Below are positions 15,580-51,087 of a DNA stretch of 64,000 bases, piece by piece. The position numbers and the translations under genes were made by a program. The stretch covers positions 22,850 to 86,849 of the forward strand of contig SKCR01026735.1 in assembly GCA_019454045.1 (NCBI GenBank), written 5' to 3'. The notes under the pieces were generated by a model. It did no database searches and had not been told where the DNA came from. It worked only from the letters and a program-made list of their open reading frames with translations. Position 1 is the stretch's first letter. Each line of letters opens with the position of its first letter. Source of the stretch: Zanthoxylum bungeanum (Eukaryota > Streptophyta > Magnoliopsida > Sapindales > Rutaceae).

Positions 15580-17535
15580 TGACCGTTGTAATCACACGCG
15601 TATAACGCAAGTGCATGTATCGTTCAAGGAGTATAAAAAGTATCGATCCAACGAGGAATTAAAACCTTTTGTTATCAATTTATGAAGTTAAATGTTTACA
15701 AGTATCTAATGAATTGATTGTTTGATTGGGTGGTGACTTTTAAACTTAAAACAAGTAAATAAAATTGCTTGAAAGTAGATTGAAGAAAATTCAAATTTAT
15801 AAAACTATCCAGGGTTGTGAATCCTTCCAATATCTTTTTAAAAGATGAAGTGGTTATTTTACGTTTGTGTAATATATTGGTTTATTAACCTGGAACACGA
15901 AATTATGTAAAAGCCTCTTCCGATGGTCAAATACAAATACCCAGTATAACCTAATTAATCATATTCCTATGTCAACCAAGTTATCTGAATTCATTAGGAT
16001 TAATTTCCAATTATGGCTACCCCCGCCCGACATGAATATTCATATCATGTAAGGAAATCTATTAAATGGTTATCTATCCTCAATGAAGATCGTGGGCTAT
16101 TGAGTCTAGGGTTTAAACCTAAAATCCCTTTCCCAAGTTCATTTCAAGTTTACCGAATCAATCTTATTAATGGCCAGTTAACAAGTCGCATTAAGACTAA
16201 GGCTCAATAAAAAAACTTTTATATTACCCAAACCATAAAATAACCCCTTATTAACCGGTGATATTGGAATTCATCACAACCCCAGATAACAGACTTAGTT
16301 ACGACACATATTTACGGGCAGTAAAAGCTTAAATAAAATAAAATACATAAAGTAAATTGTTGGAAATTAAATTACTGGAAAGTAAATGCTGGAAATTAAA
16401 TTACTTGAAAGTAAATTATTGGAAAGTAAATAAAGTAAAAGTACAATAAAGAAAATGCTGAGGTAAAATGATCCACTTTTATTACTACTATTTTAGATTT
16501 CTCCCTTAATATAATATATTAAATTTCCGTGATAATTACCAACCAGCCATATAGGCGGTATCCTGATTAAGTCAAATTAATAATTAATTACCAACCGACC
16601 AATATGGCGGTATCCTCGTTAAGTCAAATTTTAAATATTTATTGTATTATAATTAGGGGAGATTAATCTAAATAGCAATAATAAAAGCTTTACCTTTTAC
16701 CCCTGCAAGGGGGAGTTACCTCCTCATTGCTTGAAAAGTCAAAACTGAAAAAGTAAAGAAAAGAAAGTACTGTGCGTAAAAGTAAATTGCGGAAAGTAAA
16801 AACTGAAAAGTAAATAAAAAAAAATGGAAATTAATTACTGAAAGCTGTAAATAAACAAACAAGATACAATCTTCTTAGTTATTCTTAAGAAATTTCAAAG
16901 AAAAATGTATGAATTTACAAATGAAATGGCTTGGTCTTTATAGGAAAATTTTTGCCTCCATCAAATCATCCACCAAATCCATTTTTAATTGCTCCAAAAA
17001 TTACTCCACCAAATCCATTATTAATTACTATCATATTTGGTGGGAGTTTGGCCATTTTTATTTTGTATTTATTTATTTAATTTTTTTGCTTTGAAAATGA
17101 CTTTAATAATTATGCATAACACACTTGTGGATGTTTCATCAATTTCGGTCATGAAATCTTCCAAATTCGAAATTATTTTGTCGTTCAAAGTTGTAGATCT
17201 TTGCGTCTTCTTGAATCTGGAACCTGAATTAGCTCAATCCGACATTGGAATAAAAAGTGATGCCCAAAATACGACAGCTGCGCAAAACTATAATTTCTGA
17301 AACTGTACTTCGTTAGAACGCCCTTTCAAGTTTCCAACCTCCAAAATTAATATGTCAAGTCCAATTTTTTACCCTTATTTGACCCAAATTTCATCCTAAA
17401 TGATTTCATTGAGTCCCAATATTATTTTATCTACAAAATAAACTAAAACACATCAAAACGTTCATCAAATCCGAGAAACTAAACAAAATATTAAGTAAAA
17501 GGGGCGGTAAATATTGATATATTTTCCGCTCATCA
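15580..17535 (-). mobile_element. 3' LTR of element B
   Basis: 1956 bp. On the plus strand it starts TGACCGTTG and ends CGCTCATCA. On the minus strand CCTATAAAG at 16936-16944 is the likely TATA box. It includes two tandem copies of a ~75-bp unit with CCAACC...GGCGGTATCCT near 16535-16625. It is close to its partner at 49122-51087 but with scattered changes. Confidence 0.88.
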
Positions 17536-18926: not shown

Positions 18927-19352
18927 TTAAAGGTTAAGATCCAGATTTATCCGACGCTTCTTACCACGATCATTATCGAACCAGTTTATCTTGGAAAGAA
19001 TGGCGTCAATTTAAGGTTCAAAGGCTAAGATTTGGTCAATTAAATCTTGGGCAATTCGGGCAGAAAAGATGAGTTCTTTTACAGGCTTTGACACGAACCC
19101 ATTTCTCCGGGCATCATCAAGAAACACACAAAGAAAATTATAAAATCCATCATCTTTGAAAAATCCAATTGGTTTATGGTGTATGTTCAAGTTCGTCCAA
19201 GATAGTACTGTAAAAATTTCTAAGTGCATATTCCTTACAGCAATGACTCAACCCAATTCATGTGCTGCTGTTACGTATTCTGGTTTAACATCAACACTGG
19301 TACCGCAAAACACACAGATGTTTTCAACCCGTCTTCTTGAAGTAGCTTCCAT
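18927..19352 (-). pseudogene. LOG-like cytokinin riboside monophosphate phosphoribohydrolase, broken copy in B
   Basis: The ATG at 19352 starts MEATSRRRVENICVFCGTS, the N-terminal LOG signature, with no introns. A stop follows HELG. About 75 codons holding the YGxGxxGLMG loop, the substrate arginine and the PGGxGTxxE motif are deleted, and the frame resumes at EIFTVLSWTNLNIHHKPIG. A second stop (CAA to TAA) follows LAFEP, yet the same frame still reads SKINW and a C-terminal GKKRRINLDLNL. Compared with the fuller copy in C (39607-40259) this one cannot be active. LOG enzymes release free cytokinin from its riboside monophosphate in the cytosol and nucleus. Confidence 0.85.
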
Positions 19353-19398: not shown

Positions 19399-19691
19399 GA
19401 ACCTGAAAAGGGTGAGTAATAATAGCATAAGTATCTTCCAAAGGATGATTAGTAGCAAAATAGTAAATCGTGAATGGTCAAAAAGTAGCCTGGATCATGT
19501 CGGAGAAAATAACAAAACAAATCAAAATTATTAAGAAAAGACAAAGAGATATAATATTTATAATAATGTAACGGCTTGAATGACGTCTATGTGTCAGGGA
19601 CAAGCTTCCCATCCAATTTTCTTATAAATTGGCAAACATGGTCTTTTATTGTCAGATTCCCGAGACTTAACTATTGTCTTTCTTTACAGAA
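19399..19691 (-). other. spacer between unknown ORF and LOG relic in B
   Basis: No gene seen. It is matched in part by 40338-40530 in C, so it belongs to the shared cassette. Confidence 0.4.
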
Positions 19692-20093
19692 TTATGCATA
19701 TAACATGCGAATTTCGTGATACACATATCCACTGGGTTGCGTCTCAAGAGTTTTTGATATGTCATCCAAAGACTCCTTACTCAAGCCATCCCTAATGAAA
19801 TTAATCTTATCTTTGCGATTATCAGAAACCATTCCTAAATATCGACAACGAGTATCACAAAACATACGAGCACATTTATAATAAACACAGATTCTTTTGA
19901 CTCTTCTTTTTTTAGCATATGTGCTTCTTCCTAAACTAGGCATATGTAAAATAAAAGAGTCATAGGACTCACCTGACAAGTGGACCTGCGCTTCAATAAT
20001 CCAACGAATGTCAGTAGGCATACCTTTGATCATCAGTAGTCTCATTCTTTCCATGCGAGCTTTTAAACTTTCATCAGAGATTTGCAAGAGCAT
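19692..20093 (-). CDS. unknown 133-residue ORF in element B
   Basis: Open from MLLQISDESLKARMERM to EIRMLYA. Basic, no membrane segment. It has a cysteine cluster CVYYKCARMFCDTRC followed by DNRKDKINFIRDGLSKESL. It lies in sense with B between the integrase tail and the LOG relic. In C the same spot (about 40540-40640) keeps only fragments resembling the INFIRDGLS part. I do not recognise the family. It could be a second captured host sequence, a relic of an envelope-like region, or noncoding. An ATG and a full open frame in an otherwise broken element make it worth noting. Confidence 0.5.
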   Translation of the reverse strand: MLLQISDESLKARMERMRLLMIKGMPTDIRWIIEAQVHLSGESYDSFILHMPSLGRSTYAKKRRVKRICVYYKCARMFCDTRCRYLGMVSDNRKDKINFIRDGLSKESLDDISKTLETQPSGYVYHEIRMLYA

Positions 20094-20221
20094 CTTCCAT
20101 CTTAAAATGACTTAACCTGCAAAAACTAAACACACAAAAATTAAAAGACACCAAATCACAATATATACACAAATTGCATAGGTTGCCTCCCAGCTAGCGC
20201 TAAGTTTAAAGTCGTCAGCTA
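20094..20221 (-). other. spacer with Athila post-pol signature
   Basis: On the minus strand AGCGCTAGCTGGGAGGCAACC (about 20180-20203), a short stretch typical just after pol in Athila-like elements. The same is found at about 40728-40749 in C. Confidence 0.5.
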
Positions 20222-20598
20222 GACATGACTGCCCAAACGTTAGGCTGGATCTGAAAGTGTTACACTTTCTTTTAATCGCTTAATTGATTCTCCCCAATAG
20301 TGCTTGACACGCTTGTTTTTAACCTTGAATGTTTTGTTGGAGTCGGGATCATGTAACTCAACTACTCTATCTGGTAAAACCTTGGTGATTAAGAATGGTC
20401 ATGACCACCGAGATTTTGGCTTCCATGGGAAGAGTTTCAAACTTGATTTTTTTAATAGTACCCTATGCACTGGTTCCAATTTCTATGCGCACTAACTTCT
20501 CATCATGTCTCTTCTTGGCCTTTTCTTTGTACAATTTGCCATTCTCAAAAGGTTGTATGTGAAATTCCTCCAATTCGTTGAGTTGGTGGAACTGTTCA
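20222..20598 (-). pseudogene. integrase C-terminal tail of element B
   Basis: On the minus strand the translation gives LNELEEF, ENGKLYKEKAKKRHDEKLV, then LFPWKPKSRWS (usual LFPGKLKSRWSGPF), ITKVLPD, VELHDPDSNKTFKV and RVKHYWGESI, the closing part of Athila integrase. It has stops and shifts. It follows the end of the protease directly (a TAA separates ALQAT from DEQFHQLN), so RT, RNase H and the integrase core have been removed cleanly. That makes B dependent on enzymes from elsewhere. Confidence 0.75.
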
Positions 20599-20600
20599 TC

Positions 20601-21214
20601 TTATGTTGCTTGTAGTGCAAGAATAGGCTTCTTCAGTGCACAATATGCTTTATCTTCCGGCTCCACAGGTAATTGACATGCTTTAAGTTTGTCAGTAGAA
20701 CTTTGCATTGCATTTGAGTTCTGGATGGTACTATTTATCACATCAAGTCTGAAACATTCCTCATTCTTTTCATCATCTGGGAAATTCATGGCCTTGAAAT
20801 CATTTATTGTTACTTCTTGGTCATGTACCCTCATGGTTTGTTCTCCTTTTTGTACATCAATAATGGTTTGACCAGTAGCCAAGAATGGTCTCCCGAGGAT
20901 GATTGGCACATCTTCGTCTTCCTCTATATCAAGCATAATAAAATATGCTGAGAAAATAAATTTGTCAACCTTGACCAGCACATCTTCAACTACACCTCTC
21001 GGAAATACGAGCGTTATATCAGCAAGTTGTAGAGAGACTGATGTAGGCATTGTTTCTCCAATCTGTAGTTTCCTGTAAATAGAAAAAAGGAATTAAGTTA
21101 ACACTTGCACCTAAGTCACATAAAACATTACCGAAGTCATGTTCTCCTATGGTGCAAGGAATATTGAAACTGCCAGGATCATTCAACTTTGAAGGAAGCT
21201 TCATCTGGATGATA
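20601..21214 (-). pseudogene. Athila protease region of B, up to the A5 insertion
   Basis: The minus strand reads KLPSKLNDPGSFNIPCTIGE, then LCDLGASVNLIP (D-x-G-A form of the aspartic protease active site), a short frame break near 21060, then SLQLADITLVFPRGVVEDVL, VPIILGRPFLATG and DVQKGEQTMRV, down to LKKPILALQAT at 20601. The upstream part continues at 31166 once A5 is removed: EEYSAI joins IQMKLPSKLND. The order is standard for Athila gag-protease. The frame break makes it inactive. Confidence 0.8.
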
Positions 21215-23299
21215 TGTTGGACAATTATGACCCATAGCGTCACTATTTGTACAGATCATAGTGTTGTTGTATAAATTAACTGTGTGACAAAGGAGATTGC
21301 ACTCTTATCATTTGTGATTAGATCACCTAGATATATAAATGATGAGAGGTCCATATGATTTGTTCCTGGACAGAGAATGATATGAGACAATATCAGTCCA
21401 CGAAGGATAAATCATAAAATATCCCTAGTCAGAGTATTATCGAGATTGGACATCGATAAATACGTAAAAGACTAGTATTGCACTTGTGCGTGTTGTGATG
21501 GCACAACGACATAGTTCTCGTATATTTGGCTATAGGATACTCATGCAAGTGTAATAGGAGGTTGTGTTTCACCGATGGTACGGGAAACAGCTTCGCTCCT
21601 TATAGACCCCTTCGGAATTCCATTGGTAGTATGACTATGTGTCTATGGAAGTCCGAAATCGGGGTAGGTGTATTTGGTCTTAACCTGAGACTTGCACCGC
21701 TAATACTTGCGACAATCAATATACTTTGGTTGAGGTCGTCCAGGGCTTTAACCGGTTCTGTGTACGCCTATACTGGGTATATTGAGAATCATAGTGTGTT
21801 GGGTGTGATGTTAAGACGGAAGTGTCACTCCAGTCATATGGAGATGATGGTCACGTAGGATACGGTACTGGTTCTCTTTAGTACTGCAGTCATCGGGATA
21901 AAATGACTAGGTCTTGTTTATCCGATATAGAGACTAGTTACCAGAGAGATACGACATGTGCTTCGTACGGGGCAGACACGACTCCATCCTCAGGCCTAGC
22001 ACGTGATCATCTGATACTGGATCAAAATACGCAATACCACGAATACTACGCCTGATATAGATCGCTTATTCTTGTAAGCATGTTTCTGGAGAATTGGGTA
22101 GGCATGGCGCTTTGCTAGAGGCCAACCTTGTCTTGTGAATCGGTGTAAACGTAGTACGAGGTACTCACGTGTTCGGATAGTCCGACGACCCGATTTACTA
22201 CCAACATATCCGGGGATCTCATGGGTCGCTTCCCAAAGATTCACCGATGACGTATGACTCGCACTTTAATTAATCTGGGATTAATTTAATGAGAGAGAAA
22301 ATTAATCTAGGATTAATTACAGAGATATTTTTTCTGGGATAAAATATCAATTAAAGAGAGAAAACGATTAATTTGGAATTAATCGGTAAAATAATATATT
22401 TGATATATTATACGAAATTTGATTTCGACGCGGAATTAAAATTTGATTTTAATTCGGGCAAACGAATTAATTTAGAATTAATTCGTTAGCGACGTGAATA
22501 GTGATTTCACTATGCGTAATCATTTAATTACGATGCAACGGAAAATTCGTTAATTTGGAATTAGCGAACCCGAGCCAGGGATTGTTTGCGAGCGCATTCG
22601 CATTTCGAATTCGAGTGCGGCACGCAAGTCAAATCAATTGTCAAATCACAAGTCACATCAAGCGTCAAATCACATGTCACTTTGAGTGATGTGACATTTG
22701 AGTGATTGATATGAGTTGATTTGTGGTGATTGACAAGCATTTAATGTTTGCCTTTTTTTGGAAATTAAAGAAATGGTAAATGATTTTAATAATTTTGGAA
22801 ATTATAAAAACCCTTTTACAATTTTTTTATTTCCCACTCATTCTCTCTCTCTTTTATGGTTTAGGGCATTTTGGAGCCAAAAATTGCTCTTCATCTCTCT
22901 CGGCAGAACTCCCATATTTCTTCTTCTGGTTTCAGTTTCACCGTGAAACACAAGGAGGAAAATGATTATTTGTGGCAAATCATCAAGTGCTAGCACACTC
23001 TAGGAGGCATACAAAGGTGTTAGGGAAGTGATTTCGTGAGCAAGGAATCACATTGTGAAGCTTGGAGCTTGGAGCTTCCATGGAGGATCACCCATGGCCG
23101 ACTCTTGGAGGAGGAAGCAGCCCCCACGCCGAGCAGTCCACCATTTGCGCAGCCCACTGCCGAGCAAGGGAGTGCAGTGCGTTTTTCATCTTTGTTGCAT
23201 CTCTACCGATCAATGTGAGTTTTTCCGCACCTCTTTTGGTTGTATTCATACTCGTTTATGCTTTATAAATGATCCTTGGGACTTGATTGAAACCCAACA
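21215..23299 (+). mobile_element. 5' LTR of A5
   Basis: TGTTGG...CCCAACA. U3 holds the ladder of perfect hairpins (22268-22570). TATA box TATAAAAA at 22803-22810, followed by CT-rich sequence where transcription should start. Confidence 0.92.
22268..22570. repeat. hairpin ladder in A5 5' LTR
   Basis: Consecutive perfect inverted repeats with three-base loops: 8-bp arms at 22268-22286 (loop TGG), a second with loop TAG near 22300, 9-bp arms around TGG near 22367, and 12-bp arms AACGAATTAATT around TAG at 22461-22487, among others. The same row is in every A LTR seen here. Confidence 0.85.
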
Positions 23300-33927: not shown

Positions 33928-36119
33928 GTAGGACAGTTAGGGTATATATCGATATAAGGCATATATTAGATATATGTTTGGGACTTGGATGTCCCCACCT
34001 ACTGGATCTAGGAGTTGGATGAGATCCAATTGATCTTCGAGATCTACCTAGTTAATTATCATACAATTGTTGGCCAAAGTCCAAGATTGTGTGACATTTA
34101 ACGGGATCCTAGCCCACTAGGAAACACGGTTTCCCCCGAGAGTACTCGACAGAGGGTTAGAGGCTCGACGAAAAATAGTGGGAGGCAAGTATTGAATTTG
34201 CAATATTCGTTCGAATACTCGCTAAACGCGCTCATCTATATTTTACTCGTCATATTAATCAAAAGTATTAGTTGGACTAATATTTTATGTTGTTTTATAT
34301 ATATATATAGTTGGACTATATACAAACTCATTCGATATATAGTTGATTTTATAATTGGATTATAGTAATCAATATAATTGAATTAAAATGATAGTTGATT
34401 TTATAATTGGATTATAGTAATCAATATAATTGAATTAAAATGATAGTTGATTTTATAATTAGATTATAGTAATCAATATTAAAATTATAGTTGATTAAAT
34501 AATTGGATTATTGTAATCATTATAAATAGTACCTTATTAAAATTGATTAAATAGTTGGATTATTAAAATCAAGAAAGTATTAAGTTGCAATTAATAATCT
34601 TGGAGAATTAATTGACTATTCTAGAGGTGAAAAGTCAAAGTTTGCAATTGCAAGTTGCACAAGGTGCACATCATTTCGATATTCTAAAACCCAAGGCTTG
34701 GCCAAAGGTTTGTGAAATATTGAAAGATAATTGACATATCCCAAAGTGACTACCATTGGATATGGAAGACACGAAGGAATTAAAGAAAGGGTGAGGCTCT
34801 AACTTTAAAAATATTTGTCAAAGTTATGTTCACTACTAGTATTGAAATTGGATTTAAATAGTTAGTGTGGTACATAAAAATATGTATTGATGTTCAGAAT
34901 CCGCTATGAGCTGGATACTGACTTCAAGCCGAGATTTCTCTGCGAATCGGAAACGGGACGAAAGTCGCTGTTTCGACCGTAGATACCTAAGTTTAGGAAC
35001 TACCCTTTGGGTATGTACTTAATTGGGAACTGTTATAATGTAACTAGTTTGACTAGAGACATTATCTCTATATCAGTGTTTAATCCATTCTGGATAAAAC
35101 CTTTATATTATAGAACACTAAGTGTTTTATTATATAAAGATGATACTGAGATAAATACATTAGATGTAAATAACAAAATTTATATTTTGAAAATAAATAA
35201 AATCTCAAACATATAAAATGACAAATAAATAGCTCTCAAATGGATTTGATCAATAGAGACTTATTTGTGGCATTGTGTATATGACACAATTAAACAAGAC
35301 TCGTATATCCACACTTTTGAAGAATGGGTACTAGGACTGATTTGACTATTCAAATAAGGTCTGCGAATCTAGTTTATTAGGTAAAATACCTAAAATACTA
35401 TTTACTTGGTAATAGTAAAAGGGCCACCGATCTGTTAGCCCTATTCATGGTGAAGTAAGTGGGCCCATATCTAGCTAGGCTAGATGTGAACATGAATATT
35501 TCGTGACCTTAACGGATGTGGCATCACGTTATGGTTATGTGTTTCTTTTGAAGAACACAGATCGAAAACTATGAGATTTTCGACACAAAGTAGATAAACA
35601 GATCGACTATAGTATTATGCCGTCACGGTTAGACCGTAATGGAAAATACTTAAGCAGTAAGTTTCAAATATACATGAAAGAGTATAGTATTCTTTCAGAT
35701 GAGGACTCCTCCCGAGACACGTCAGTTATACGGTGTGTCCGAACGAAACCGAATTTTGTTAGACATGATAAGGTTTATCACGAGTCGCTCTGAGCTATCA
35801 TTTCCTTCAACAGGATATGTATTAACAGTGCAAAACTTATTTAGAATAAGGTTCCATGATAAATCTGTTTGACAGATTTCATATAGGATATGAACAGGAA
35901 AGAAACAGGGTTTCTCATTCCTAATAATTTGGGTATGCCGGGCATAACGTTTGGATGATACCAAACTAAGGACCCAAATTGGATAAGTGCCATATATAGG
36001 TTATCCTAAGGGAAACCATAAGTATAGTACTTATATATATCTCACATGAGAACAATATGATTGTTACTCACCATGCGGTTTTCCTAAGGGGAACACCGAT
36101 ATGTAGTGGTCAGTGGAGG
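33928..36119 (+). pseudogene. A4 interior, left part
   Basis: Starts at a deletion joint. Carries one conserved-loop hairpin (about 34059-34095), five TTGATT hairpins (34343-34572), AT-rich middle sequence, then the start of the pol relic from about 35420 (GGGCCACCGATC). It stops at GTGGTCAGTGGAGG, where C enters. No intact frame. Confidence 0.7.
34343..34572. repeat. array of five TTGATT hairpins, A4
   Basis: Same design as 25482-25687. Inner arms TATAAT (first three, one with a loop change to TAG), AATAAT pairing ATTATT (34491-34519), and AATAGT facing ATTATT with a G-T pair (34543-34572), an intermediate between paired states. Confidence 0.75.
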
Positions 36120-38294
36120 TGACCGGCGTAAACACACACGTGTAACGCAAGCGCACGTATCGTTCAAGTAGTATAAAAATATCGATCTCACGAGGACTTA
36201 ATCCTACTGTTGTTATTAATTGTTGAATCTATTTATTTACAAATATCTAATTAAATGGAGAAGAGAATGATTGTTTGATTGGTTGAAAGTGGTTTTACAA
36301 AATAAATAAATAAATAAAGACAAAAGAAAATACTAAGGAAAATAACAAAAGACACAAAGATCTAGGGTCGTGAATCATTCTAATATCATTTAAAAGATGA
36401 AGTGGTTATTTTATGTGTGTGTAATAAATCAGTTTACTAACCTGGAACACTAAATTATGCAAAAGCCTCTGTCGATGGTCAGACGCAAATACCCAGTTTA
36501 ACCTAATTGAATCATATGTCTATGTTAACCAAATTATCTGGATTCATTAAGTTTAAGTTCCAATTATGGCTACCCCAGCCCGACAGTTATATTCCCATCC
36601 TGTAAGGAAATCTATTAAAGGGTTATCTATCCTCAAGGAAGATCGTGGGCTATTAAGTCTAAGGCTGAAACCTAAAATCCTATGTCTAGTTCATTTTAGA
36701 TTTACCACATCAATCTTATTGGTGATCAGACAACAAGAAGTATTAAGTTTAAGACTTAATAAGTAAACCTTTAAATTACCCAAACTATAAAATAAACCAT
36801 TATAAACCGGTGATATTAGAATTCATCACAACCCCAGATAACTAACACATAACTAGGGCTAGTAACAACTTAAAAGTAAAAGACATAAAGTAAAAATACT
36901 GAAAAGTAAAGGACATAAAGTAAAACTGAAAAGTAAAATAAAATAAAATGCTAAGGTGAAAGGAATTACTTTTACTACTACTAATTTAGATATCTCCCAT
37001 AAAATAATATATAAACTTGTGATAATAATACCAACCGACCATATAGGCGGTATCCTGATTAAGTCAAATTAAGTCCAACCAGCTATAAAGGCGGAACCAA
37101 AATTAATTGTCAACCGACCAATCTGGCAGTATCCTTTATTAGTCAGGTTTAAACCAGATTAAAATGAATTACCAACCGACCAATCTGGCGGTATCCTTTT
37201 TAAGTCAATATTTTAAATAGTGAATATATTATTTTTAAGGGAGATTAATCTAAATAGTAACAGTAAAAGAATTACCTTTCACCCTAGCTGGAGAAGTTAC
37301 CTCCTCATGGTAAATAGTAAAAACTGTAAAAGTAAAAAGTAAAAATTAAATTACTATTATTACAAAAAGTAATTAAAATTATTTACAAAACTAAAAACTA
37401 AAATAAAAAAACTAAAAAAACTAAAGAATCTAGAGAGAGAAACTCTCTCTTTAGAAGGAATTGAAGAGAGAGGAAGGTGCACTGAATTATGAAATTTCGC
37501 GCTGAATTTATAGAAAAATTTGGTTCCAGCGTCGCGACGCCAGGTCCTCAGCGTCGCGACGCCGGATTTGTCGACGTGGCACGCTCTGGTTCGCTGGTTT
37601 GAAGATTCTGGATAAGATGATAAGGTGACACGTGGCAGAGTGGTTGGGCTTCAATTATTGTGACACGTGGCGGCTTCTGATTGGTCGCTGAGAATTCTTA
37701 TCCGCCACATGTCAGATAAGGATAGGATACTCAATTATTGATGCTGACGTGGCGGTGACGTGGCGACACGTGGGAAAGACTGTCGGCACCATAGAATTGC
37801 GACACGTGTCACGCTGTGATTGGCTGATGCTGACGTGGCAAGTTGACTTGGTTGACCTTGTGACGTGGCAGATGACACATGGCGAAGTTGACTTTTTGAC
37901 CGATGACATGGCTGATGACGAGGCGACACGTGTCAACTCTGAGTGTCGGCAGTATATGATGATGACACGTGGCACAGCGCACGTTAGCAGGTCGGCTGTG
38001 ATGGTGACACGTGGCACGGCGCATTTTAGCAAAGTCAAACTTTTCTCAGATTCTGATTTGTGGACCCGGCACGTTAGCCTGTTCGGCGTATTTTAGACGT
38101 CGCGACACGCAGAAGACCAAAATATCCCTGTTGACGCATTTTTGTCTGTTTTTGACCCAAATTGCCTCCATGCTTTCCAACTTTATTTATCTACAAAATA
38201 ACACAAACATATCAAAACGTTCACAAAACTCAAGAAACTATACATAATATTAGGTTAAATGAGTGGGAAATAGTGATATAAATACCACTCATCA
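36120..38294 (-). mobile_element. 3' LTR of C
   Basis: Plus-strand ends TGACCGG...CTCATCA. TATA box CTATAAATTC on the minus strand at 37504-37513. G-box/ABRE array at 37574-38015. Four tandem ~60-bp units with CCAACC...GGCGG near 37029-37205. Holds two copies of GCGTCGCGACGCC near 37535-37563 where the 5' LTR has one. Confidence 0.92.
37574..38015. promoter_or_regulatory. ACGTG (ABRE/G-box) array in C 3' LTR
   Basis: Repeated GACACGTGGC, GACGTGGC and GACACGTGTC, the same array as 43620-44062. Reads of this promoter go to the left, out of the element. Confidence 0.8.
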
Positions 38295-39606
38295 CACCCC
38301 CAACCTAACATTTTGCTAGTCCTCGAGCAAAACATAAAATAAAATAACATAAATAAATTAACTAAACCACTTTCGTAGGATCACGATTCATTTAGCGTAT
38401 GCAACAAGCCTTTAAACCCCTAGGTGTCCCTAGTGGACGAGTTGTAGTCTCGTGAGGGCTTACAGCAATGATACCCACAAATATTTTACAAAAGTAAAAA
38501 GTTAGTTAAACTAATGCACACAAAAGCAAAAAGACACGAAAAGAAAATAAAGATGTTAGTGACTAATCAGGTGAACTTCTATTCCAAGTTACTAGTTGTT
38601 TTGTTTATTCTAAATTACCGAATAAGTAAATTCTCCGATTATTTTTACCATTCTTCATATACACAGCCAACAAAATATTAATCAACTCATTTTTGCCCAC
38701 AACAGTCATAAGTGCAGTTGATAAGAGAGTAATATTTTTGTCCTAAAGTTCTATCAGATTTCACACCTTTTTGCAGCAATGGAATAATTTTTCTCATTTT
38801 TCTGATTTTTTCTTTGATTTTTCTCTATTTTGACTTTTTATTTATATACAATACCTTTCGTCTATGTAGCGAGCTTTGGGTCGGTGGCTCCCAAACCAGT
38901 TGGCTTTAGGGCACCAGGTGTTAAGACACCCCTACGGACTTAATTACCCAGACTTCAGATATATATATTTTTTGCAGCATCTTTGATCCATGTAACGAGC
39001 TTTGGGCCAGTGACTCCCAAACCAGTTGGTTTTAGGGCACTAGGTGTTAAAACACCCTTACAGACTTAATAACCCGGATCTCAGACGTTTTTTTTTTTTT
39101 TTTTTTACTCCACTGTTTTTTGAGATGTTTCCTCCAATTAAACTAGAGCACTGAATATTACAAACTTTTCAATTTTAGCTCATGTCTGTATGTTACTATA
39201 TATGTTGATAATATTTGTCAACTGAGCATATGAAGATTCCTTTTAGTCCGTTTTAAGGATATTTCACAAATTAAATAATTCAAAAGGAAATAAACAAAAA
39301 TTAACTTGTTTCGAAATAGGGTTGAGATACGTATCAGGAGTGGAAACTCCTTACTCGGCTATCTCTTACCAATTTCACCTTTTTAGTCAAAACAAAAACA
39401 CAAATATTTTTGTAATTTTTGAAAAATTTTCAATTTTTTTGTATTTTCCGAAAAAATTTGGACTAAAAATAAAAACAACATTCAAACTAGGTACTAATCA
39501 ACTAATTCCCTCCCCCAAACCTAAATGAGACATTGTCCCCAATGTCTTAAAAAGTAGAAGAAGAGTTTAGAAGATAATACCTGGTTAGCAGAAATTCTAC
39601 AGGAAA
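38295..39606 (-). other. C 3' untranslated region
   Basis: Noncoding. Polypurine tract GGTTGGGGGTG on the minus strand next to the LTR (about 38295-38306). Two copies of the block with CCAAACCAGTTGG (about 38868-38960 and 38991-39090), as in B. A run of about 18 T follows at 39089. No gene seen. Confidence 0.7.
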
Positions 39607-40259
39607 TTAAAGGTTAAGATCCAGATTAACCCGACGCCTCTTACCACGATCGTCCCCAGACCAATTTATCTTTGAAATGATAGGGTCAACTTGTGGTTCA
39701 TAGGCTATGAGTTGGTCTATTAGATCCGGAGCAGTTCTGGCAGTGAAGATGAGTTCTTTCATAGGTTTTGACACGAACCCATTTCTCGAGCATCATCAAG
39801 AAACACACAAAGAAAATCATAAAATCCATCAACGTTAAGCAGTCCAAGCGGTTTCTGGTGTATGTTCAGGTTCGCCCAAGATAGAACTATAAAAATTTCC
39901 TCCAATGTGCCCAAGCCATCTGGTAAAGCGATAAAAGCATCAGCACGGTTAATCATTTCTACCAGTCGTTCAGACATACCTGGCACGATCAATTCCTCTC
40001 CATTTGATGAACCAATAAGATTTGCCTCTGCCAAAGGTTTTGGGATGATTCCCAAAACGTGACTGCCTCCTTCCTGTGCGGCTTTTGAAACGATCCCCAT
40101 AAGTCCAAGATTGCCTCTGCCATATATTAAGTGCACATTCCTTGCTGTTAAGACTCGACCCAATTCATGTGCTGCCTCTACGTATTGTGGCTTAGTACCA
40201 ACACTAGTACCGCAAAACACACAGATGTTTTCAACTCGTCTTCTTGAAGTGGATTCCAT
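39607..40259 (-). pseudogene. LOG-like cytokinin riboside 5'-monophosphate phosphoribohydrolase in element C
   Basis: The ATG at 40259 begins MESTSRRRVENICVFCGTS. The frame is open for 166 codons, to 39759. LOG features in order: nucleotide-binding loop LIYGRGNLGLMG (usual YGGGxxGLMG), HVLGIIPK, GMSERLVEM (usual GMHxRKAxM; arginine kept, lysine lost), ADAFIALPDGLGTLEE (usual PGGxGTxEE; catalytic Glu kept, one Gly changed to Asp), and KPLGLLNVDGFYD. A one-base loss near DDAR shifts the frame. The other frame continues GFVSKPMKELIF to SKINW and ends KRRRVNLDLNL at 39607, so the source protein was about 217 residues, normal for LOG. No introns, although plant LOG genes have several, which points to capture from mRNA. 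In sense with C. Activity is doubtful. Confidence 0.85.
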
Positions 40260-40333: not shown

Positions 40334-40337
40334 TACC

Positions 40338-40789: not shown

Positions 40790-41307
40790 TTAAGGAGGTT
40801 TCAATGTCGTTTTGGATGTCTGATTAAAGACAATCCCGTGAGCGTTGCTTTTGAAGGGTCTCTTCCAACGGTAAAGTGGCAAAAAAAGTTTTGTCTCATT
40901 CAGTGCTCGTGCCACCTTTTTGCTCATTGTTGTTCCAGTGATTCCTGAAAAGAAAGAAAGAAAATTAGGAGGTCTCGTATGGTGCTTGACTTGGAATGGA
41001 AGTTCCATTCTGTCAAGCTTCTGGGTGATATCTTTGATTTGTACTCCCCAAAACAGCGATGTTTCTCCTGAATGCTCTGGATCTTTTTAAGGTCAGACAT
41101 TTGCTCCTCCATTTGCTCTATTTCTTGTTCCACCTTTTCTTCACAGATGTATTGTAAAATTTTTGTATTCAGGTCTTCATCTGTCATCTGTGAAATACAT
41201 GCTTCAAAATTGTCAACCTGAGGATATAAAGAAATGTCAGATTTTAGGTCTTCATCCTCTGATATGACTGGAATGGATGGTTCAGTTAGATCTTCATGAA
41301 ACATCAA
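40790..41307 (-). pseudogene. small acidic ORF of C downstream of gag
   Basis: 41307-40924 is open for 127 codons: acidic start (ISEDEDLKSDISLYPQ), a coiled stretch EEKVEQEIEQMEEQMSDLKK, then FGEYKSKISPRSLTEWNF. An overlapping frame, 41008-40790, continues with MELPFQVKHHTRPPNF and RWKRPFKS. TTTCTTTCTTTTCAG at about 40950 looks like a splice acceptor. I do not recognise the product. It lies where protease and pol should be. Confidence 0.4.
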
Positions 41308-41435
41308 AGTAAAGCATGCTCCAAGATCTTCATTTTGATAATTGAATGTTTGATCCTCCGTTGTTGGTGCAGTTGGTACAAATAGATCAGCTTCATCCTC
41401 GTCAGAATCTGAATAATAAAAGTCAAATTGAGACT

Positions 41436-42044
41436 TTACCGGTTCGGGCTCCTGAACTGATACCTCTGGTTGTTGATACTGCTCAGTCTTCTCCTCTGTT
41501 GAAGTGTCTTTGTGGATTTTTGGTACTTGAAGGCTTCATCAGTGTCATCTGAAACTGGTTTTTGAGGTATGTAGTTCTGGTTTTCTGTTAATTGTCTCAT
41601 TTGATCTGTCATTCTCTGAATGAATTCTGATTGTCTCTGAATACTTTCAAGTTGCTTCAGGCTTGTTTCAAGTATTTCATCCAACTTTTGTTTCTCGAAC
41701 ATATCTTTGAGCATGTTTAACAACTGATCTTCCTCTGATGGTTCTGGTTGTTGATAAAAATCGCATATGGATGGTGGATAAGATGGAAAATGTGATGGTT
41801 TTTCATACTTTGAATGATTCTGAAAATTCTGCCACTCTGAACGGTATATACATTGATCGCTCGGGTGGTTACTATCACATATTACACATCTTCCCATTTC
41901 GTTCTGTTGAGCAAATGTGGAATTGTTTGGTTCTGGCATCCAGTGATAATTGTTGGGCTGGACAACAGGCCTCAGAAAATCGGACTGTTGCTCCCAGATG
42001 TGGGGTGTATCTTCTTGTAAAGCTCGTAATCTCTCAATCTCCAA
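41436..42044 (-). CDS. C-terminal part of Athila-type Gag in C
   Basis: 202 codons from MEIERLRALQEDTPHIWEQQ. A zinc knuckle CVICDSNHPSDQC (C-x2-C-x3-H-x4-C, as in Athila) at about residues 53-65, then a Q/E-rich coiled region with LKQLESIQRQSEFIQRMTDQ. The matrix/capsid-like retrotrans_gag domain seen in B at 48399-48626 is missing. The fragment begins about 110 bp after the primer site. It could bind RNA but not form a full Gag shell, so C would need Gag in trans. Confidence 0.65.
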   Translation of the reverse strand: MEIERLRALQEDTPHIWEQQSDFLRPVVQPNNYHWMPEPNNSTFAQQNEMGRCVICDSNHPSDQCIYRSEWQNFQNHSKYEKPSHFPSYPPSICDFYQQPEPSEEDQLLNMLKDMFEKQKLDEILETSLKQLESIQRQSEFIQRMTDQMRQLTENQNYIPQKPVSDDTDEAFKYQKSTKTLQQRRRLSSINNQRYQFRSPNR

Positions 42045-42151
42045 TAAAGTTCCATTTTTTCAATCACCTGAAAACAGAAGAAAGAAATAAAAATTACAGA
42101 TAAAAATAAAGAAAATTAGATAGCTTCAAAATAACAACTCAAGAAATATAA

Positions 42152-42170
42152 GTCCTCGGCAACGGCGCCA
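42152..42170 (-). promoter_or_regulatory. primer binding site of C (tRNA-Asp type)
   Basis: The minus strand reads TGGCGCCGTTGCCGAGGAC, almost the standard Athila site TGGCGCCGTTGCCGGGGA, 6 bp from the LTR end. Confidence 0.85.
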
Positions 42171-42176
42171 AAAACT

Positions 42177-44368
42177 TGACCGGCGTAAACATACACGTGT
42201 AACGCAAGCGCACGTATCGTTCAAGTAGTATAAAAATATCGATCCCACGAGGACTTAATTCCTACTGTTGTTATTAATTGTTGAATCTATTTATTTACAA
42301 ATATCTAATTAAATGGAGAAGAGAATGATTGTTTGATTGGTTGAAAGTGGTTTTACAAAATAAATAAATAAATAAAAGACAAAAGTAAATACTAAGGAAA
42401 ATAACAAAAGACACAAAGATCTAGGGTCGTGAATCATTCTAATATCATTTAAAAGATGAAGTGGTTATTTTATGTTTGTGTAATAAATCAGTTTACTAAC
42501 ATGGAACACTAAATTATGCAAAAGCCTCTGTCGATGGTCAGACGCAAATACCCAGTTTAACCAATTGAATCATATGTCTATGTTAACCAAATTATATGGA
42601 TTCATTAAGTTTAAGTTCCAATTATGGCTACCCCCGCCCGACAGGTATATTCCTATCTTGTAAGGAAATCTATTAAAGGGTTATCTATCCTCAAGGAAGA
42701 TCGTGGGCTATTAAGTCTAAGGCTGAAACCTAAAATCCCTATGTCTAGTTCATTTTAGATTTACCACATCAATCTTATTGGTGATCAGACAACAAGAAGC
42801 ATTATGCTTAAGACTTAATAAGTAAACCTTTAAATTACCCAAACTATAAAATAACCCCTTATAAACCGGTGATATTAGAATTCATCACAACCCCAGATAA
42901 CTAACACATAACTAGGGCTAGTAACAACTTAAAAGTAAAAGACATAAAGTAAAAATACTGAAAAGTAAAAGACATAAAGTAAAACTGAAAAGTAAAATAA
43001 AATAAAATGCTAAGGTGAAAGGAATTACTTTTACTACTACTAATTTAGATATCTCCCATAAAATAAAATATAAACTTGTGATAATAATACCAACCGACCA
43101 TATAGGCGGTATCCTGATTAAGTCAAATTAAGTCCAACCAGCCATAAAGGCGGAACCAAAATTAAATTGCCAACCGACCAATCTGGCGGTATCCTTTATT
43201 AGTCAGGTTTAAACTAGATTAAAATGTATTACCAACCGACCAATCTGGCGGTATCCTTTTTAAGTCAATATTTTAAATAGTGAATATATTATTTTTAAGG
43301 GAGATTAATCTAAATAGTAACAGTAAAAGAATTACCTTTCACCATAGCTGGAGAAGTTATCTCCTCATGGTAAATAGTAAAAACTGTAAAAAGTAAAAAG
43401 TAAAAAGTAAAAATTAAATTACTATTATTACAAAAAGTAATTAAAATTATTACAAAACTAAAAACTAAAAATAAAAAAACTAAAAAAAACTAAAGAATCT
43501 AGAGAGAGAACTCTCTCTTTAGAAGGAATTGAAGAGAGAGTAAGGTGCACTGAATTATGAAATTTCGCGCTGAATTTATAGAAAAATTTGGTTCCAGCGT
43601 CGCGACGCCGGATTTGTCGACGTGGCACGCTCTGGTTCGCTGGTTTGAAGATTCTGGATAAGATGATAAGGTGACACGTGGCAGAGTGGTTGGGCTTCAA
43701 TTATTGTGACACATGGCGGCTTCTGATTGGTCGCTGAGATTCTTATCCGCCACGTGTCAGATAAGGATAGGATACTCAATTATTGATGCTGACGTGGCGG
43801 TGACGTGGCGACACGTGGGAAAGAGACTGTCGGCACCATAGAATTGCGACACGTGTCACGCTGTGATTGGCTGATGCTGACGTGGCAAGTTGACTTGGTT
43901 GACCTTGTGACGTGGCGGATGACACATGGCGAAGTTGACTTTTTGACCGATGACATGGCTGATGACGAGGCGACACGTGTCAACTCTGAGTGTCTGCAGC
44001 ATATGATGATGACACGTGGCACATCGCACGTTAGCAGGTCGGCTGTGATGGTGACACGTGGCACGTCGCATTTTAGCAAAGTCAAACTTTTCTCAGATTC
44101 TGATTTGTGGACCCGGCGCACGTTAGCACTGTTCGGCGTATTTTAGACGTCGCGACGCGGAAGTCTGGGCTTCGCGACGCGCAGAAGACCAAAATATCCC
44201 TGTTGACGCATTTTTGTCTGTTTTTGCCCCAAATTGCCTCCAATGCTTCCAAACTTTATTTTATCTACAAAATAACACAAAACATATCAAAACGTTCACA
44301 AAACTCAAGAAACTATACAAAATATTAGGTTAAATGAGTGGGAATAGTGATATAAATACCACTCATCA
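42177..44368 (-). mobile_element. 5' LTR of C
   Basis: 2192 bp. U3 is the right part, U5 the left part. TATA box CTATAAATTC at 43572-43581, with ACGTG array just upstream (43620-44062). Tandem ~60-bp GGCGGTATCC units at about 43089-43265. Differs from the 3' LTR by a few indels between short direct repeats. Confidence 0.92.
43572..44062 (-). promoter_or_regulatory. TATA box plus ACGTG (ABRE/G-box) array of the C LTR promoter
   Basis: About twelve ACGTG cores between 43620 and 44062: CACGTG at about 43675, 43751, 43811, 43851, 43975, 44013 and 44055, and GACGTGGC or close forms at about 43619, 43791, 43802, 43878 and 43909. Less than one core is expected by chance in this length at even base composition. 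Also several TTGAC (W-box) words near 43888-43945. The array sits 40-490 bp upstream of the TATA box on the transcribed strand. ACGTGGC is the binding core of bZIP factors acting in abscisic acid, stress and light responses. The response itself is inferred. Confidence 0.75.
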
Positions 44369-45897
44369 GGAGGATAGTGATACTCGATGAAAAATCGGAG
44401 TAATACTGTTCAAGGCACGAAGTCCGTAATGGAACATAAATAGTTCATCAAGGATGAAACTAAACCATTAATCTTCAAATACACAAGAACCACGTAGATC
44501 GGAGAGAATCAGAAAACAACCTGTGGTATGGGTTTCTGATCTCACCTCATAAAGATGTCAATCTTATGGAGGTATATCAGCCGACTACGTACGAGGAAGT
44601 GATACAAGGTATCAACTCCCTTTTATGGCAAAGTGCCATGAGTCTGAAATGGATTCCATGTATAACAACTATTTTGGATACTAGTTGTTGTACCACAAGG
44701 CATTGTGCATATTGGTACATTAAACGTCTTCAAGGAAGACGTACATGGATGGCAACATACCAACATACAAAGCTAGGCTTGTGACGAAAAGGTATCGTTA
44801 TCAACATTGTGTTGATTACGGTTCAACCTTTTACCTGTTGCCATGGTAAATCCATTTGGATAATGCTTGCTGAGATACTGCATATTTCATTTATGAAATG
44901 TGTCAGTTAAATATCAAAATCGCTTTCCTGAAAAGGAAACCGTTTGGAGGATGCTTACAACATCCTGACGATTTTGTATAACCGACAAACAAGGTTTGCG
45001 GGTTATTCGATCCATGTTTGGATTGGAGCAAGCATAAGGTTCTTGGAATTGTCGTTTTGAAATAATCATAATGGTTTATGATTTGACTTAAAACGAAATG
45101 ATTCTTGTGTATATAAGGAGGTTAGTGGGAGCGTACTGACAAGGAAATTCCCATAAAGCAATTGGTGAAAGCTTGGCTTTCATAGATATTCTCCGTAGAA
45201 TTCTGGGGAGTAACAGCCTTTATTCAAGGAATAAAGATCTACTGGGATAGATTTGGAGTTGTTAACACTCTCTGGGAAATTGTACATTTGAAATGTACTT
45301 GATATGGTGTCTCATACGCTTTGAGCATATGGAGTCACAATCAGGACAATCCAAGTGATAGTCACTGGATTGAAGTTAAGGACATCTATTAGTATCTTAG
45401 AGAACTAAAGATGCTATCTTAAACTATGGCGAATGAGAACTTGAAGTGACTTGGATCACTGCTGCAAGTTTCCAAACAGTTAAATACTGCGGTACTATAA
45501 AGTTTGAATAACGGGACAGTGAGCTGGAAATCTTCCGAGCAAGATACTGTTGCCGAATAAACAACAAATGCGGATTATTGCTGCAGTTGAGGCAGCAATA
45601 GAAGCCATTTGGATCGAAAATAAATCTAATTAGATTAGATATTGTTCTGTTAGCGGCTGAGCTAGGCGTCAGCACAGGCTAAGGAATTAAAGGTCTCATC
45701 TACGATCCAGATATATACTTAGATATTCATCTGATTCGTTCGGATCATACATCATGGCGATGTGATGATCGTGTAAATCGCGTCAGACGATAATCGCTCA
45801 AATTGCTGACGAAAACTTTTCCTCAGCAATTTGAGCAAACCGTACATAGTTCGGGTGTAAGACACTTGAGTGACTGGCTATGTGCCAAGTGGGAGAT
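44369..45897 (+). pseudogene. A4 pol relic, right part
   Basis: Continues the A4 interior after C (GGAGGATAGTGATACTCG). Patches: VIRSMFGLEQA-stop-GSWNCRF near 45000, KAWLS...AFIQGIKIYWDR near 45170-45250, and VSYALSIWSHNQ near 45310. The shared TAA is at 45558-45560. Ends with the tract CCAAGTGGGAGAT before the LTR. Not coding. Confidence 0.78.
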
Positions 45898-47982: not shown

Positions 47983-48720
47983 GTGTTGGAATATGGATTA
48001 TTCCCTTATCTGTTGAAATTGTTGACATAGTTCACCGTTTCTTAATATTGTTTTGGCTCTAGTACTCCTCCATATGGTGAACTTGTGGCTCTGGTGATGT
48101 TTACAACTTTTTTGCTAAGTGTTTTTAGGCTTTTGAACATTTGCTCCAACTTAGTATTCACTGCTGAGTTAGCTCCAACTTCATAAATTCCTGCAATCCG
48201 TTGAATCATGCTCCTTTCTATTGGCCACAAGGAATTGTTGTTAGCCATTTCTTCGATTAAGTCCCAGGCTTGTTCTTCTCATTTTTCCATCAAAGCTCCT
48301 CCAGCAGCAGCATCATTTGTGGTTCTCATTATTCCAGAAAGTCCATTATAGAAAGTTTGGACTTGAAGCCACTTTGGAATCTCATGGTGAGGACATTTTC
48401 AGAGAAAATCTTTGAATCTTTCCCAAGCTTCACAGAGGGATTCTGAATCTTGCTGCACAAAGGATGTAATGTCATTCCTCAACTTTGCTGTTCTGGCTGG
48501 TGGAAAGTACTTTGTAAGGAATTTGGTGGCTAGAGTGTGCCAAGTTGTTATGGAACCTGTTGGTAGTGAATGTAGCCAAGCTTTTGCTATGTCTTTCAAA
48601 GAATATGGAAAAACTCGCAGTCTCATTGCTTCTTTAGCTGCTCGATTGTAATTGAAAGTACCGCAAATTTCCAGGAAGTTGCTGCTATGGGCATTAGGAT
48701 CTTCAGTTGCATTCCCCCCG
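47983..48720 (-). pseudogene. Athila-type Gag of element B
   Basis: The minus strand gives the retrotrans_gag domain at 48626-48399: RVFPYSLKDIAKAWLHSLP, SITTWHTLATKFLTKYFPP and ESLCEAWERFKDFL. After a frame break comes KCPHHEIPKWLQVQTFYNG and EEQAWDLIEEMANNNSLWP (48250 region), IYEVGANSAVNTKLEQ, and NNPYSNT at the A4 junction. The reading continues in 31839-31166. Several stops. Gag normally forms the particle that packages the RNA. Confidence 0.82.
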
Positions 48721-49121
48721 AACTAAATTGACCGCTGAATCATCTGAATGCATGTTTTGATTTCACACACATTTGCTAGTAAGGGAGGAAGTAAAATACA
48801 TGAAATGAAGCCGTCAACCATCGGAATGGTTATGTCTCGAATGGGAATTGGTGGTGCAACTTCCAACGGTTCGGGTTCCAGATTAACGATTGCTTCATAG
48901 CCTTCTCGCCTTTCCTTTCTTAATTGTCTGATGGTTCTTTCAATTTCTGGGTCAAGCGGTTGGAGTTCAAAGCTTCTGGTTCATCTCATGTACTGTCTGA
49001 GAACCAGAAACAAGTGAAAACAAAAACATAAGTAAAAAGAAAATTAGATACAAGTAAATGTATCTAACCTCAAAACTAATAGTGAAAGATAAATAAGTCT
49101 CCGGCAACTGCGCCAAAAACT
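48721..49121 (-). other. B leader with primer binding site
   Basis: Primer site on the minus strand at about 49098-49115, TGGCGCAGTTGCCGGAGAC, one change from C's version in the core. Remaining sequence is the 5' leader and start of gag, with no clear start codon. Confidence 0.65.
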
Positions 49122-51087
49122 TGACCGGCGTAATCACACACGTATAACGCAAGCTCACGTATCGTTCAAGTAGTATAAAAAGTAACGGTCCCACGAGAAC
49201 TTAAAACCTTTTGTTATCAATTTATGAAGTTAAATGTTTACAAGTATCTAATGGATTGATTGTTTGATTGGGTGGTGACTTTAAAACTTAAAAAAAGTAA
49301 ATAAAATTTCTTGAAAGTAGATTGAAGAAAATTCAAATTTATAAAACTATCCAGGGTTGTGAATCCTTCCAATATCTTTTTAAAAGATGAAATGATTATT
49401 TTACGTTTGTGTAATATATTGGTTTATTAACCTGGAACACGAAATTATGTAAAAGCCTCTTCCGATGGTCAAATATAAATAACCAGTATAACCTAATTAA
49501 TCATATTCATATGTCAACCAAGTTATTTGAATTCATTAAGATTAAGTTCCAATTATGGCTACCCCCGCCCGATAGGTATATTCTTATCCTGTAAGGAAAT
49601 CTATTAAAGGGTTATCTATCCTCAATGAAGATCGTGGGCTATTGAGTCTAGGGTTTAAACCTAAAATCCATTTCCCAAGTTCATTTCAAGTTTACCGAAT
49701 CAATCTCATTAATGGCCAGTTAACAAGAAGCATTAAGACTAAGGCTCAATAAATAAACCTCTATATTACCCAAACCATAAAATAACCCCTTATTAACCGG
49801 TGATATTGGAATTCATCAAAACCCCAGATAACTGACTTAGTTACAACACATATTTACGGGCAGTAAAATCTTAAATAAAATAAAATACATAAAGTAAATT
49901 GTTGGAAATTAAATTACTAGAAAGTAAATGCTGGAAATTAAATTACTTGAAAGTAAATTACTATAAAGTAAATGCTGAAAGTAAATAAAGTGAAAGTACA
50001 ATAAAGAAAATGTTGAGGTAAAAGGATCCACTTTTATTACTACTATTTTAGATATCTCCCTTAATATAATATATTAACTTTATATGATAATTACCAACCA
50101 GCCATATAGCCGGTATCCTGATTAAGTCAAATTAATAATTAATCACCAATCGACCAATATGGTGGTATCCTCGTTAGATCAGATTTTAAATAGTTATTAT
50201 ATTATAATTAGGGGAGATTAATCTAAATAGCAATAATAAAAGCTTTACCTTTTACCCCAGCAAGGGGGAGTTACCTCCTCATTGCTTGAAAAGTAAAAAC
50301 TGAAAAAGTAAAGAAAAGAAAGTATTATGCGTAAAAGTAAATTGCGGAAAGTAAAAATTGAAAAGTAAAGAAAAGAAAGTGCGAAAGCGGAAATTAATTA
50401 CTGAAAGCTGTAAATAAACAAACAAGATACAATCTTCTTAGTTATTCTTAAGGAATTTCAAAGAAGAAAGTATGAATTTACAAATGAAATGGCTTGGTAT
50501 TTATAGGCAAAATTTTGTCTCCATCAAATCATCCACCAAATCCATTATTAATTGCTCCACTAATTGCTCCACCAAATCCATTATTAATTTCTATAATGTT
50601 TGGTGGGAGTTTGACTATTTTTATTTATTTATTTATTTGCTTTGAAAATGACTTTAATAATTACGCATAACACACTTCTGGATGTTTCATCCATTTAGGT
50701 CATGAAATCTTCAGAATTCGAAATTATTTTGTTCTTCCCAGTTGTAGATCTTTGAGTCTTCTTTAATTGGAAACTTGAATCAGCTCAATCCGATATCGGA
50801 ATAAAAATTTATACCCAAAATACAACAGTTGTGCAAAACCGGAATTTCTGAATCTGCATTTCGTTAGAACGCCCTTTCAAGTTTCCAATCTCCAAAATTA
50901 ATATGTCAAGTCCAATTTTTTGCCCTTATTTGACCCACATTTCGTCCTAAATTATTTCATTGAGTCCCAATATTATTTTATCTACAAAATAAACTAAAAT
51001 ACATCAAAATGTTCATCAAACTCGAGAAACTAAACAAAAATATTAAGTGAAAGGGGCGGTAAATATTGATATATTTTCCGCTCATCA
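49122..51087 (-). mobile_element. 5' LTR of element B
   Basis: 1966 bp. TATA box CCTATAAATA on the minus strand at 50499-50508. Lacks the ACGTG array of C although the two LTR families are alike over much of their left half. Flank GATAC on the right. Confidence 0.9.

What the first reader, a model, noticed from the sequence alone, without database searches (positions are those of the whole stretch)
39607..40259. LTR retrotransposon carrying a captured LOG (cytokinin-activating) gene
Seen: an intronless frame with LOG motifs (ICVFCGTS, YGRGNLGLMG, PDGLGTLEE, KPLGLLNVDGFYD), in sense inside element C, whose ends are fixed by matching LTRs and a GGAGG duplication. Known: LOG enzymes turn cytokinin riboside monophosphates into active hormone, and plant LOG genes have introns. 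Inferred: capture of a processed mRNA, so that each new copy spreads a hormone gene. I know of no description of this, but could not search. The single-base loss in this copy may be private to it, so intact sister copies may exist.
Basis: partly seen in the sequence, partly recalled or inferred. Interest (0 to 1): 0.88.

Follow-up and report, generated by a model that had tools for sequence, protein, structure and literature searches.

The report
Plant retrotransposon with captured hormone gene
A jumping DNA element in a plant genome carries a broken copy of a plant hormone-activating gene; elements of this kind were already known, but an older relative around it also carries a gene resembling one from plant RNA viruses, which I did not find described in the papers searched.

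Summary
Element C (36120-44368, minus strand) is one LTR retrotransposon insertion: TG..CA LTRs, a GGAGG duplication, and paralogous sites with a single GGAGG. It contains an intronless LOG-like gene (40259-39607). This copy is dead: the frame breaks near codon 160 and the PGG loop reads PDG. Intact 217-residue relatives exist (up to 88% identical). The novelty claim fails for LOG: PMC9289625 reports LOG/YgdH domains in LTR retrotransposons of Citrus and Populus, citing Steinbauerova 2011. Beyond that: (1) C lies inside an older relative, element D (15580-51087), which has its own decayed LOG and, between pol and LOG, an ORF matching Viral_NABP/Carla_C4, families named from carlavirus proteins. 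Its relatives occur in Populus, Xanthoceras, Acer, Rhamnella and Citrus, and one Citrus gene model joins this ORF to a LOG C-terminus. (2) LOG differences between C and D give dN/dS about 0.3, though non-coding flanks are little more diverged than dN. (3) 64 of 83 full-length LOG relatives end in L-x-L-x-L. A two-gene 3' cassette, viral-like protein plus LOG, is the best reading; its function is inferred. The host genome could not be searched.

The parts
36115..36119 (.). target site duplication GGAGG, left of element C
   Evidence: paralogous sites with one GGAGG at 8342-8346 and 27576-27580
36120..38294 (-). 3' LTR of element C
   Evidence: LTR pair K2P 0.022; TG..CA ends
38295..38305 (-). 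polypurine tract of element C
   Evidence: read directly output
39607..40259 (-). LOG-like gene of element C, intronless, frame broken near codon 160, PGG reads PDG, tail ends NLDLNL
40337..40337 (-). splice-acceptor-like CAG|GT, 77 nt before the LOG start in C (consensus only)
40924..42059 (-). two frames with a C-x2-C-x3-H-x4-C knuckle (CVICDSNHPSDQC), probable gag remnant of element C
   Evidence: translation; no Pfam match above cut-off; gag reading is by motif only
42151..42169 (-). primer binding site TGGCGCCGTTGCCGAGGAC of element C (tRNA-Asp type by recall)
42177..44368 (-). 5' LTR of element C
44369..44373 (.). target site duplication GGAGG, right of element C
15580..17535 (-). 3' LTR of the older related element D; TSD GATAC at 15575-15579
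   Evidence: LTR pair K2P 0.070
18927..19352 (-). LOG remnant of element D, about 76 codons lost inside and two early stops
19403..19403 (-). splice-acceptor-like CAG|GT, 50 nt before the LOG start in D, same sequence context as in C
19587..20100 (-). decayed Viral_NABP/Carla_C4-like gene of element D; longest open stretch 19692-20111
   Evidence: PF05515 1.7e-05 above the curated cut-off, PF01623 0.0035 below it; limits read against the 182-aa relatives
20240..20600 (-). probable end of integrase/pol of element D (assignment by recalled Athila-like motifs)
   Evidence: translations
20601..21255 (-). probable protease region of element D (assignment by recalled motif; 20601-21092 has no Pfam match)
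48399..48722 (-). gag of element D
   Evidence: PF03732 Retrotrans_gag 5.9e-18
49122..51087 (-). 5' LTR of element D; TSD GATAC at 51088-51092

Best explanation
Elements C and D belong to one family of plant Ty3/gypsy (most likely Athila-type) retrotransposons. Its complete members carry two extra genes between pol and the 3' LTR: a viral-like zinc-finger nucleic-acid-binding protein (NABP), then a LOG-like phosphoribohydrolase. The LOG came from a host mRNA long before C inserted, and it has mostly been kept under protein-level selection within the element lineage. C is a more recent insertion, apparently a shortened form without the NABP, and its LOG has since decayed. Shown: the LOG fold and family, both elements' limits, the order NABP-LOG-LTR in D, intact relatives of each protein, and dN/dS below 1 between C and D. 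Inferred: the pol end before the NABP (recalled motifs), that complete members with both genes exist, that they are expressed from spliced messages using the acceptor-like sites before each extra gene, and that the two proteins act in the host nucleus to make cells permissive for the element (LOG by raising active cytokinin and so cell division or meristem identity, NABP by binding nucleic acid or countering silencing).
For: LOG. The model of relative P0002 has pLDDT 84.8 and matches the Arabidopsis LOG structures at TM 0.91-0.94 by target. 33 of 33 members of A4 (33 of the 120 listed) match PF03641. PGGxGTxEE is kept in 73 of 83 full-length relatives. Selection: 138 shared codons between C and D give dN 0.12, dS 0.40, ratio 0.31; spectrum-matched simulations gave as few amino-acid changes in 0.1-0.5% of runs. 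NABP in D; among 36 relatives (36 of the 89) 31 match Carla_C4 and 29 match Viral_NABP at E 0.01, best about 1e-8; 0 of 10 shuffled controls match. Linkage outside the window: Citrus predicted protein P0205 is NABP followed by a LOG C-terminus (residues 172-227, E 1.7e-11). Clusters with many member sequences: up to 325 for LOG and 566 for NABP; how many of these are separate copies in one genome is not known.
Against: Non-coding flanks of the LOG differ between C and D by only 0.13-0.22, close to dN, so against that yardstick the constraint is weak; dS and the LTR distance (0.39) are the yardsticks that favour it. The protein database holds predicted open frames, so intact relatives are over-represented. 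The NABP matches are moderate, its model is poor (pLDDT 52) and it found no viral structural match at E 0.001 or below. No intact complete element with both genes was seen. Part of C (about 40779-42140) has no nucleotide match in D. Nothing here shows expression or enzyme activity. Nine relatives of one cluster lack the L-x-L-x-L end.
Confidence: 0.66

Rival explanations
1. The LOG is a passenger: captured once, carried by copying, with no use to the element. The low dN/dS reflects chance or an unsuitable yardstick.
For: Flank divergence is as low as dN. Both window copies are broken. [quoted passage not shown] Intact relatives are over-represented in a database of predicted frames.
Against: The gene sits at the same place in C and D, whose LTRs differ by 0.39. 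Relatives about 50-60% identical mostly keep the 217-aa frame, the PGG loop and a basic tail. A passenger would not be expected to keep these.
Confidence: 0.2
2. Element LOG tails (basic residues plus L-x-L-x-L) turn the enzyme into a nuclear, TOPLESS-recruiting regulator, so its main use is gene repression and not hormone activation.
For: 64 of 83 full-length relatives end exactly in L-x-L-x-L (chance about 0.002 per protein by leucine content, rows being related) and 79 of 83 have a basic pair in the last 14 residues. 10 of 13 clusters at 70% identity hold at least one such tail. The tail is predicted disordered (residues 201-217). That L-x-L-x-L is the EAR motif which binds TOPLESS is recalled.
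Against: The catalytic loop is kept in 73 of 83, which argues for enzyme activity. Nine relatives in one cluster lack the motif. Tails of host LOGs in the same plants were not seen.
Confidence: 0.15
3. The NABP-like ORF is not of viral kin but a plant or gag-derived zinc-finger protein that resembles carlavirus proteins by convergence (basic stretch followed by four cysteines).
For: Matches cover mainly the basic and cysteine part (residues 38-121 of P0124). No structural match. No virus named as source among the 120 listed relatives.
Against: Two separate Pfam families match, 31 and 29 of 36 members at E 0.01; shuffles do not match.
Confidence: 0.3

Closest known systems
LOG/YgdH-bearing Ty3/gypsy elements of Citrus and Populus (Steinbauerova et al. 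2011, cited in PMC9289625; section 12 of the latter read)
   Same: Gypsy-type element with an added LOG-family domain. By recall of the 2011 abstract, two Athila-like elements with an extra ORF similar to LOGL4.
   Different: PMC9289625 section 12 names no viral-like NABP beside it. The 2011 paper was not held, so this could not be checked there.
Athila-type env-like or extra 3' ORFs (PMC7264820 and PMC6317226, passages only)
   Same: Extra sense ORF between pol and the 3' LTR; tRNA-Asp-type PBS (recalled).
   Different: Here the 3' ORFs have recognisable enzyme and viral-protein kin.
AlkB/2-ODD-bearing Gypsy elements of Phalaenopsis (PMC9289625, abstract and section 12)
   Same: Captured cellular enzyme kept in a gypsy lineage, with a proposed role against host control.
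   Different: A different enzyme; there the activity was shown in vitro, here nothing is tested.
Carlavirus-type cysteine-rich nucleic-acid-binding proteins (Pfam PF01623, PF05515)
   Same: Basic stretch followed by a four-cysteine cluster; profile matches.
   Different: Here in plant DNA beside retrotransposon genes in D and, by one gene model, in Citrus; relatives mostly about 182 aa.
Arabidopsis LOG3 (At2g37210) and LOG8 (At5g11950)
   Same: Same fold and active-site loops.
   Different: 41-46% identical over the core. The element genes C and D are intronless and most relatives end in a basic L-x-L-x-L tail. The names LOG3 and LOG8, and that plant LOG genes have introns, are recalled.

Membership tests
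LTR retrotransposon | paired LTRs with TG..CA, target duplication, PBS, polypurine tract | tested here: met
LTR retrotransposon | gag domain | tested here: met
   PF03732 5.9e-18 in D; in C only a knuckle motif, no Pfam match above cut-off
Ty3/gypsy, Athila lineage | reverse transcriptase phylogeny | not tested
   no reverse transcriptase among the 13 window ORFs given to Pfam of 46 listed; the lineage is inferred from the PBS and recalled motifs
LOG cytokinin riboside monophosphate phosphoribohydrolase | profile and fold of the family | tested here: met
   (TIGR00730 above cut-off). The NF058542 equivalog model scores 105 against a cut-off of 300, so equivalence to that model is not met
LOG cytokinin riboside monophosphate phosphoribohydrolase | intact PGGxGTxxE loop in the window copy | tested here: not met
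   C reads PDGLGTLEE; 73 of 83 full-length relatives have PGGxGTxEE
LOG cytokinin riboside monophosphate phosphoribohydrolase | enzyme activity | not testable with these tools
   needs protein assay
LOG-bearing gypsy elements of Citrus and Populus | common descent of the LOG genes | tested here: inconclusive
   Populus-named relatives fall on the same side as C, away from Arabidopsis LOGs, but these rows were not tied to elements and the sample was picked by similarity
Viral_NABP / Carla_C4 proteins | profile match above curated cut-off | tested here: met
   PF05515 25.3 bits against 23 for D; P0124 above both cut-offs; PF01623 for D itself is below cut-off
Viral_NABP / Carla_C4 proteins | same fold as viral proteins | tested here: inconclusive
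   model too poor (pLDDT 52), no match
EAR-motif repressors | L-x-L-x-L motif | tested here: met
   64 of 83 relatives at the very C-terminus; function untested

The most novel reading that the evidence does not exclude
A long-lived family of rosid LTR retrotransposons has assembled its own accessory module from two sources, a plant-virus-type nucleic-acid-binding protein and a nuclear, EAR-tailed cytokinin-activating LOG. It uses them, through spliced messages, to counter silencing and push cells toward division or meristem fate, so that new insertions reach the germ line: a plant retroelement that manipulates its host with hormone.
Probability: 0.2. Interest if true: 0.88.

Novelty: new variant of a known kind. 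Interest (0 to 1): 0.55.

Why it matters
LOG-bearing gypsy elements appear as one of many extra domains in the survey I could read. A paired viral-like protein and hormone enzyme, if kept intact in element families across rosid trees, would be a plant counterpart to accessory genes of animal retroviruses. It would give a concrete, testable case of a retroelement acting on host development and silencing. It would also suggest genes passing between RNA viruses and retroelements in plants.

Tried and rejected
Host genome search: the genome search 'own' with the LOG fragment was sent 15 times and each time the machine was busy. So sister elements, host LOG genes and dN/dS among copies could not be studied there.

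Viral contigs: two scans, with LOG alignment A1 and NABP alignment A3. 49 and 45 stretches matched a pattern; none was confirmed. The tool says that records near the window's own genome may be left out.

NABP structure: model pLDDT 52, Foldseek on viral models without a match at E 0.001 or below, so structure neither helps nor harms. NABP in solved structures: nothing below E 0.6. PHROGs: nothing for 2 of 2.

Considered and rejected: a chance open frame (profile E-values rule it out); a host gene hit by the element (the gene sits inside the LTR pair and recurs at the same place in D); a bacterial contaminant LOG (nearest kin are plant-type).

Contig-length coincidence: LOG P0062 and NABP P0215 both list a longest contig of 8723 bases. 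This may be one contig but could not be opened, so it is not counted as evidence.

Papers: searches. Seen: PMC9289625 outline with abstract, passages and section 12; PMC7264820, PMC6317226 and PMC11963269 passages only; the rest as search listings. Steinbauerova 2011 was not held under two identifiers; its abstract is recalled.

Full report
What is there. Element C occupies 36120-44368 on the minus strand. It has two LTRs of about 2.2 kb with TG..CA ends and K2P 0.022, a GGAGG duplication at 36115-36119 and 44369-44373, a primer binding site TGGCGCCGTTGCCGAGGAC and a polypurine tract. It sits in a copy of another repeat. Other copies of that repeat in the window run through the same point with a single GGAGG (8342-8346, 27576-27580, and one at 59483; they carry one more G just before it than C's left flank). 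So C came in as one unit.

The LOG gene. The open part 40259-39759 gives PF03641 at 4.7e-30, TIGR00730 at 9.3e-42 and Arabidopsis At2g37210 at 2.2e-50. The whole gene, 40259-39607, matches the 217-residue relatives in length and order without introns. In this copy the frame shifts near codon 160 and the PGG loop reads PDG; the YGG loop reads YGR, as in relative P0001. The copy is therefore not expected to work. Of 1289 relatives found, 120 were listed, and 83 of those have at least 205 residues. Among the 83, 73 keep PGGxGTxEE, 64 end exactly in L-x-L-x-L, and 79 have a basic pair within the last 14 residues. Three of the 83 also read PDG (P0050, P0072, P0114). Single-linkage clustering of the 83 at 70% gave 13 clusters, 10 of them with at least one L-x-L-x-L end. 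The 19 without the exact end include all nine rows of one cluster (six of them named Xanthoceras), several one-letter departures, and truncated or odd ends. The model of P0002 is confident except for both ends, the tail above all, and matches LOG structures.

A second, older element. C lies, with other repeats, between the halves of element D. D has LTRs 15580-17535 and 49122-51087, duplication GATAC on both sides and K2P 0.070. D has gag (PF03732); probable protease and integrase ends lying next to each other, by recalled motifs, so most of pol appears to be missing; then an ORF at 20100-19587; then a LOG remnant at 19352-18927 that has lost about 76 codons and gained two early stops. The LOG lies at the same relative place in C and D.

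Selection. Over 138 shared codons (4 left out), dN is 0.12 and dS 0.40. Simulations with the observed transition share, three CpG weights and either copy as start gave as few amino-acid changes in 0.1-0.5% of 4000 runs each. Against this, non-coding flanks differ by only 0.13-0.22, so the size of the constraint is unsure. LTRs differ by 0.39.

The viral-like ORF. The D ORF matches PF05515 (Viral_NABP) at 1.7e-05, above cut-off, and PF01623 (Carla_C4) weakly, below cut-off. Cluster sizes reach 566 member sequences, which need not be copies in one genome. Of 36 relatives scanned (36 of 89), 31 match Carla_C4 and 29 Viral_NABP at E 0.01; 0 of 10 shuffles match anything. Of 127 relatives of at least 160 aa (of 169 listed), 100 carry C-x2-C-x4/5-C-x3-C. 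No virus was named as source among the 120 listed; the other 683 were not seen. The structure model was too poor to use. One Citrus predicted protein, P0205, is this ORF followed by a LOG C-terminus (E 1.7e-11), so the order NABP then LOG is not peculiar to the window. In C no NABP match is found: tblastn with it finds only D.

How it may be expressed. CAG|GT with 16 of 20 pyrimidines lies 50 nt (D) and 77 nt (C) before the LOG start, in the same sequence context. A similar site with 14 of 20 lies 16 nt before the NABP start in D. Other YAG sites lie in the same 150-nt stretches, a few as pyrimidine-rich but without the following G. YAG|G sites with at least 16 of 20 occur about 0.012 times per 100 nt of either strand in the window. 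C and D are related, so this is one observation. Splicing is inferred.

Origin. A tree of 83 relatives, the window copy, two Arabidopsis LOGs and two bacterial LOGs places the 84 on one side of the Arabidopsis pair (SH-aLRT 94). The rows were chosen by similarity to C and are not all proven to lie in elements, and no host LOG of the same plants was at hand, so a single capture is likely but not shown.

What is known. PMC9289625 section 12 reports the LOG/YgdH domain in LTR-retrotransposon consensuses of two Citrus species and Populus, in line with Steinbauerova et al. 2011. From recall, that abstract speaks of two Athila-like elements similar to LOGL4. So LOG capture is not new. I found no paper on a carlavirus-type protein in a retrotransposon in the searches (15 of 64 papers listed); that library lacks most subscription papers.

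Verdict. Observation confirmed, interpretation partly right, novelty claim wrong for LOG. The pairing with a viral-like protein and the conserved LOG tail make it a new variant worth a genome-wide look.

Noticed in passing
window 19587-20100 (-): Viral_NABP/Carla_C4-like gene inside the older element D, with hundreds of relatives in the protein database, the named ones from plants; treated as part of the main finding.
   Followed up: yes
window 1072-2392: Tandem array of units of about 79 bases.
   Followed up: no
window 9872-11385, 12321-13795, 21213-22721, 29090-30598, 31840-33322, 45897-47381, 52391-54602, 61015-62518: A repeated unit of about 1.5 kb, probably LTRs or fragments of another retroelement family, occurs at least eight times; the window is a pile of nested elements and C sits in one of them.
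   Followed up: partly
window 4322-5098 (-): Frame with a sub-threshold match to Transposase_28, a domain known from gypsy elements (Pfam 0.0003, below cut-off).
   Followed up: no
window 40779-42140: The 5' part of C has no nucleotide match in D, so C may be a chimera of two related elements and not a simple deletion form.
   Followed up: partly
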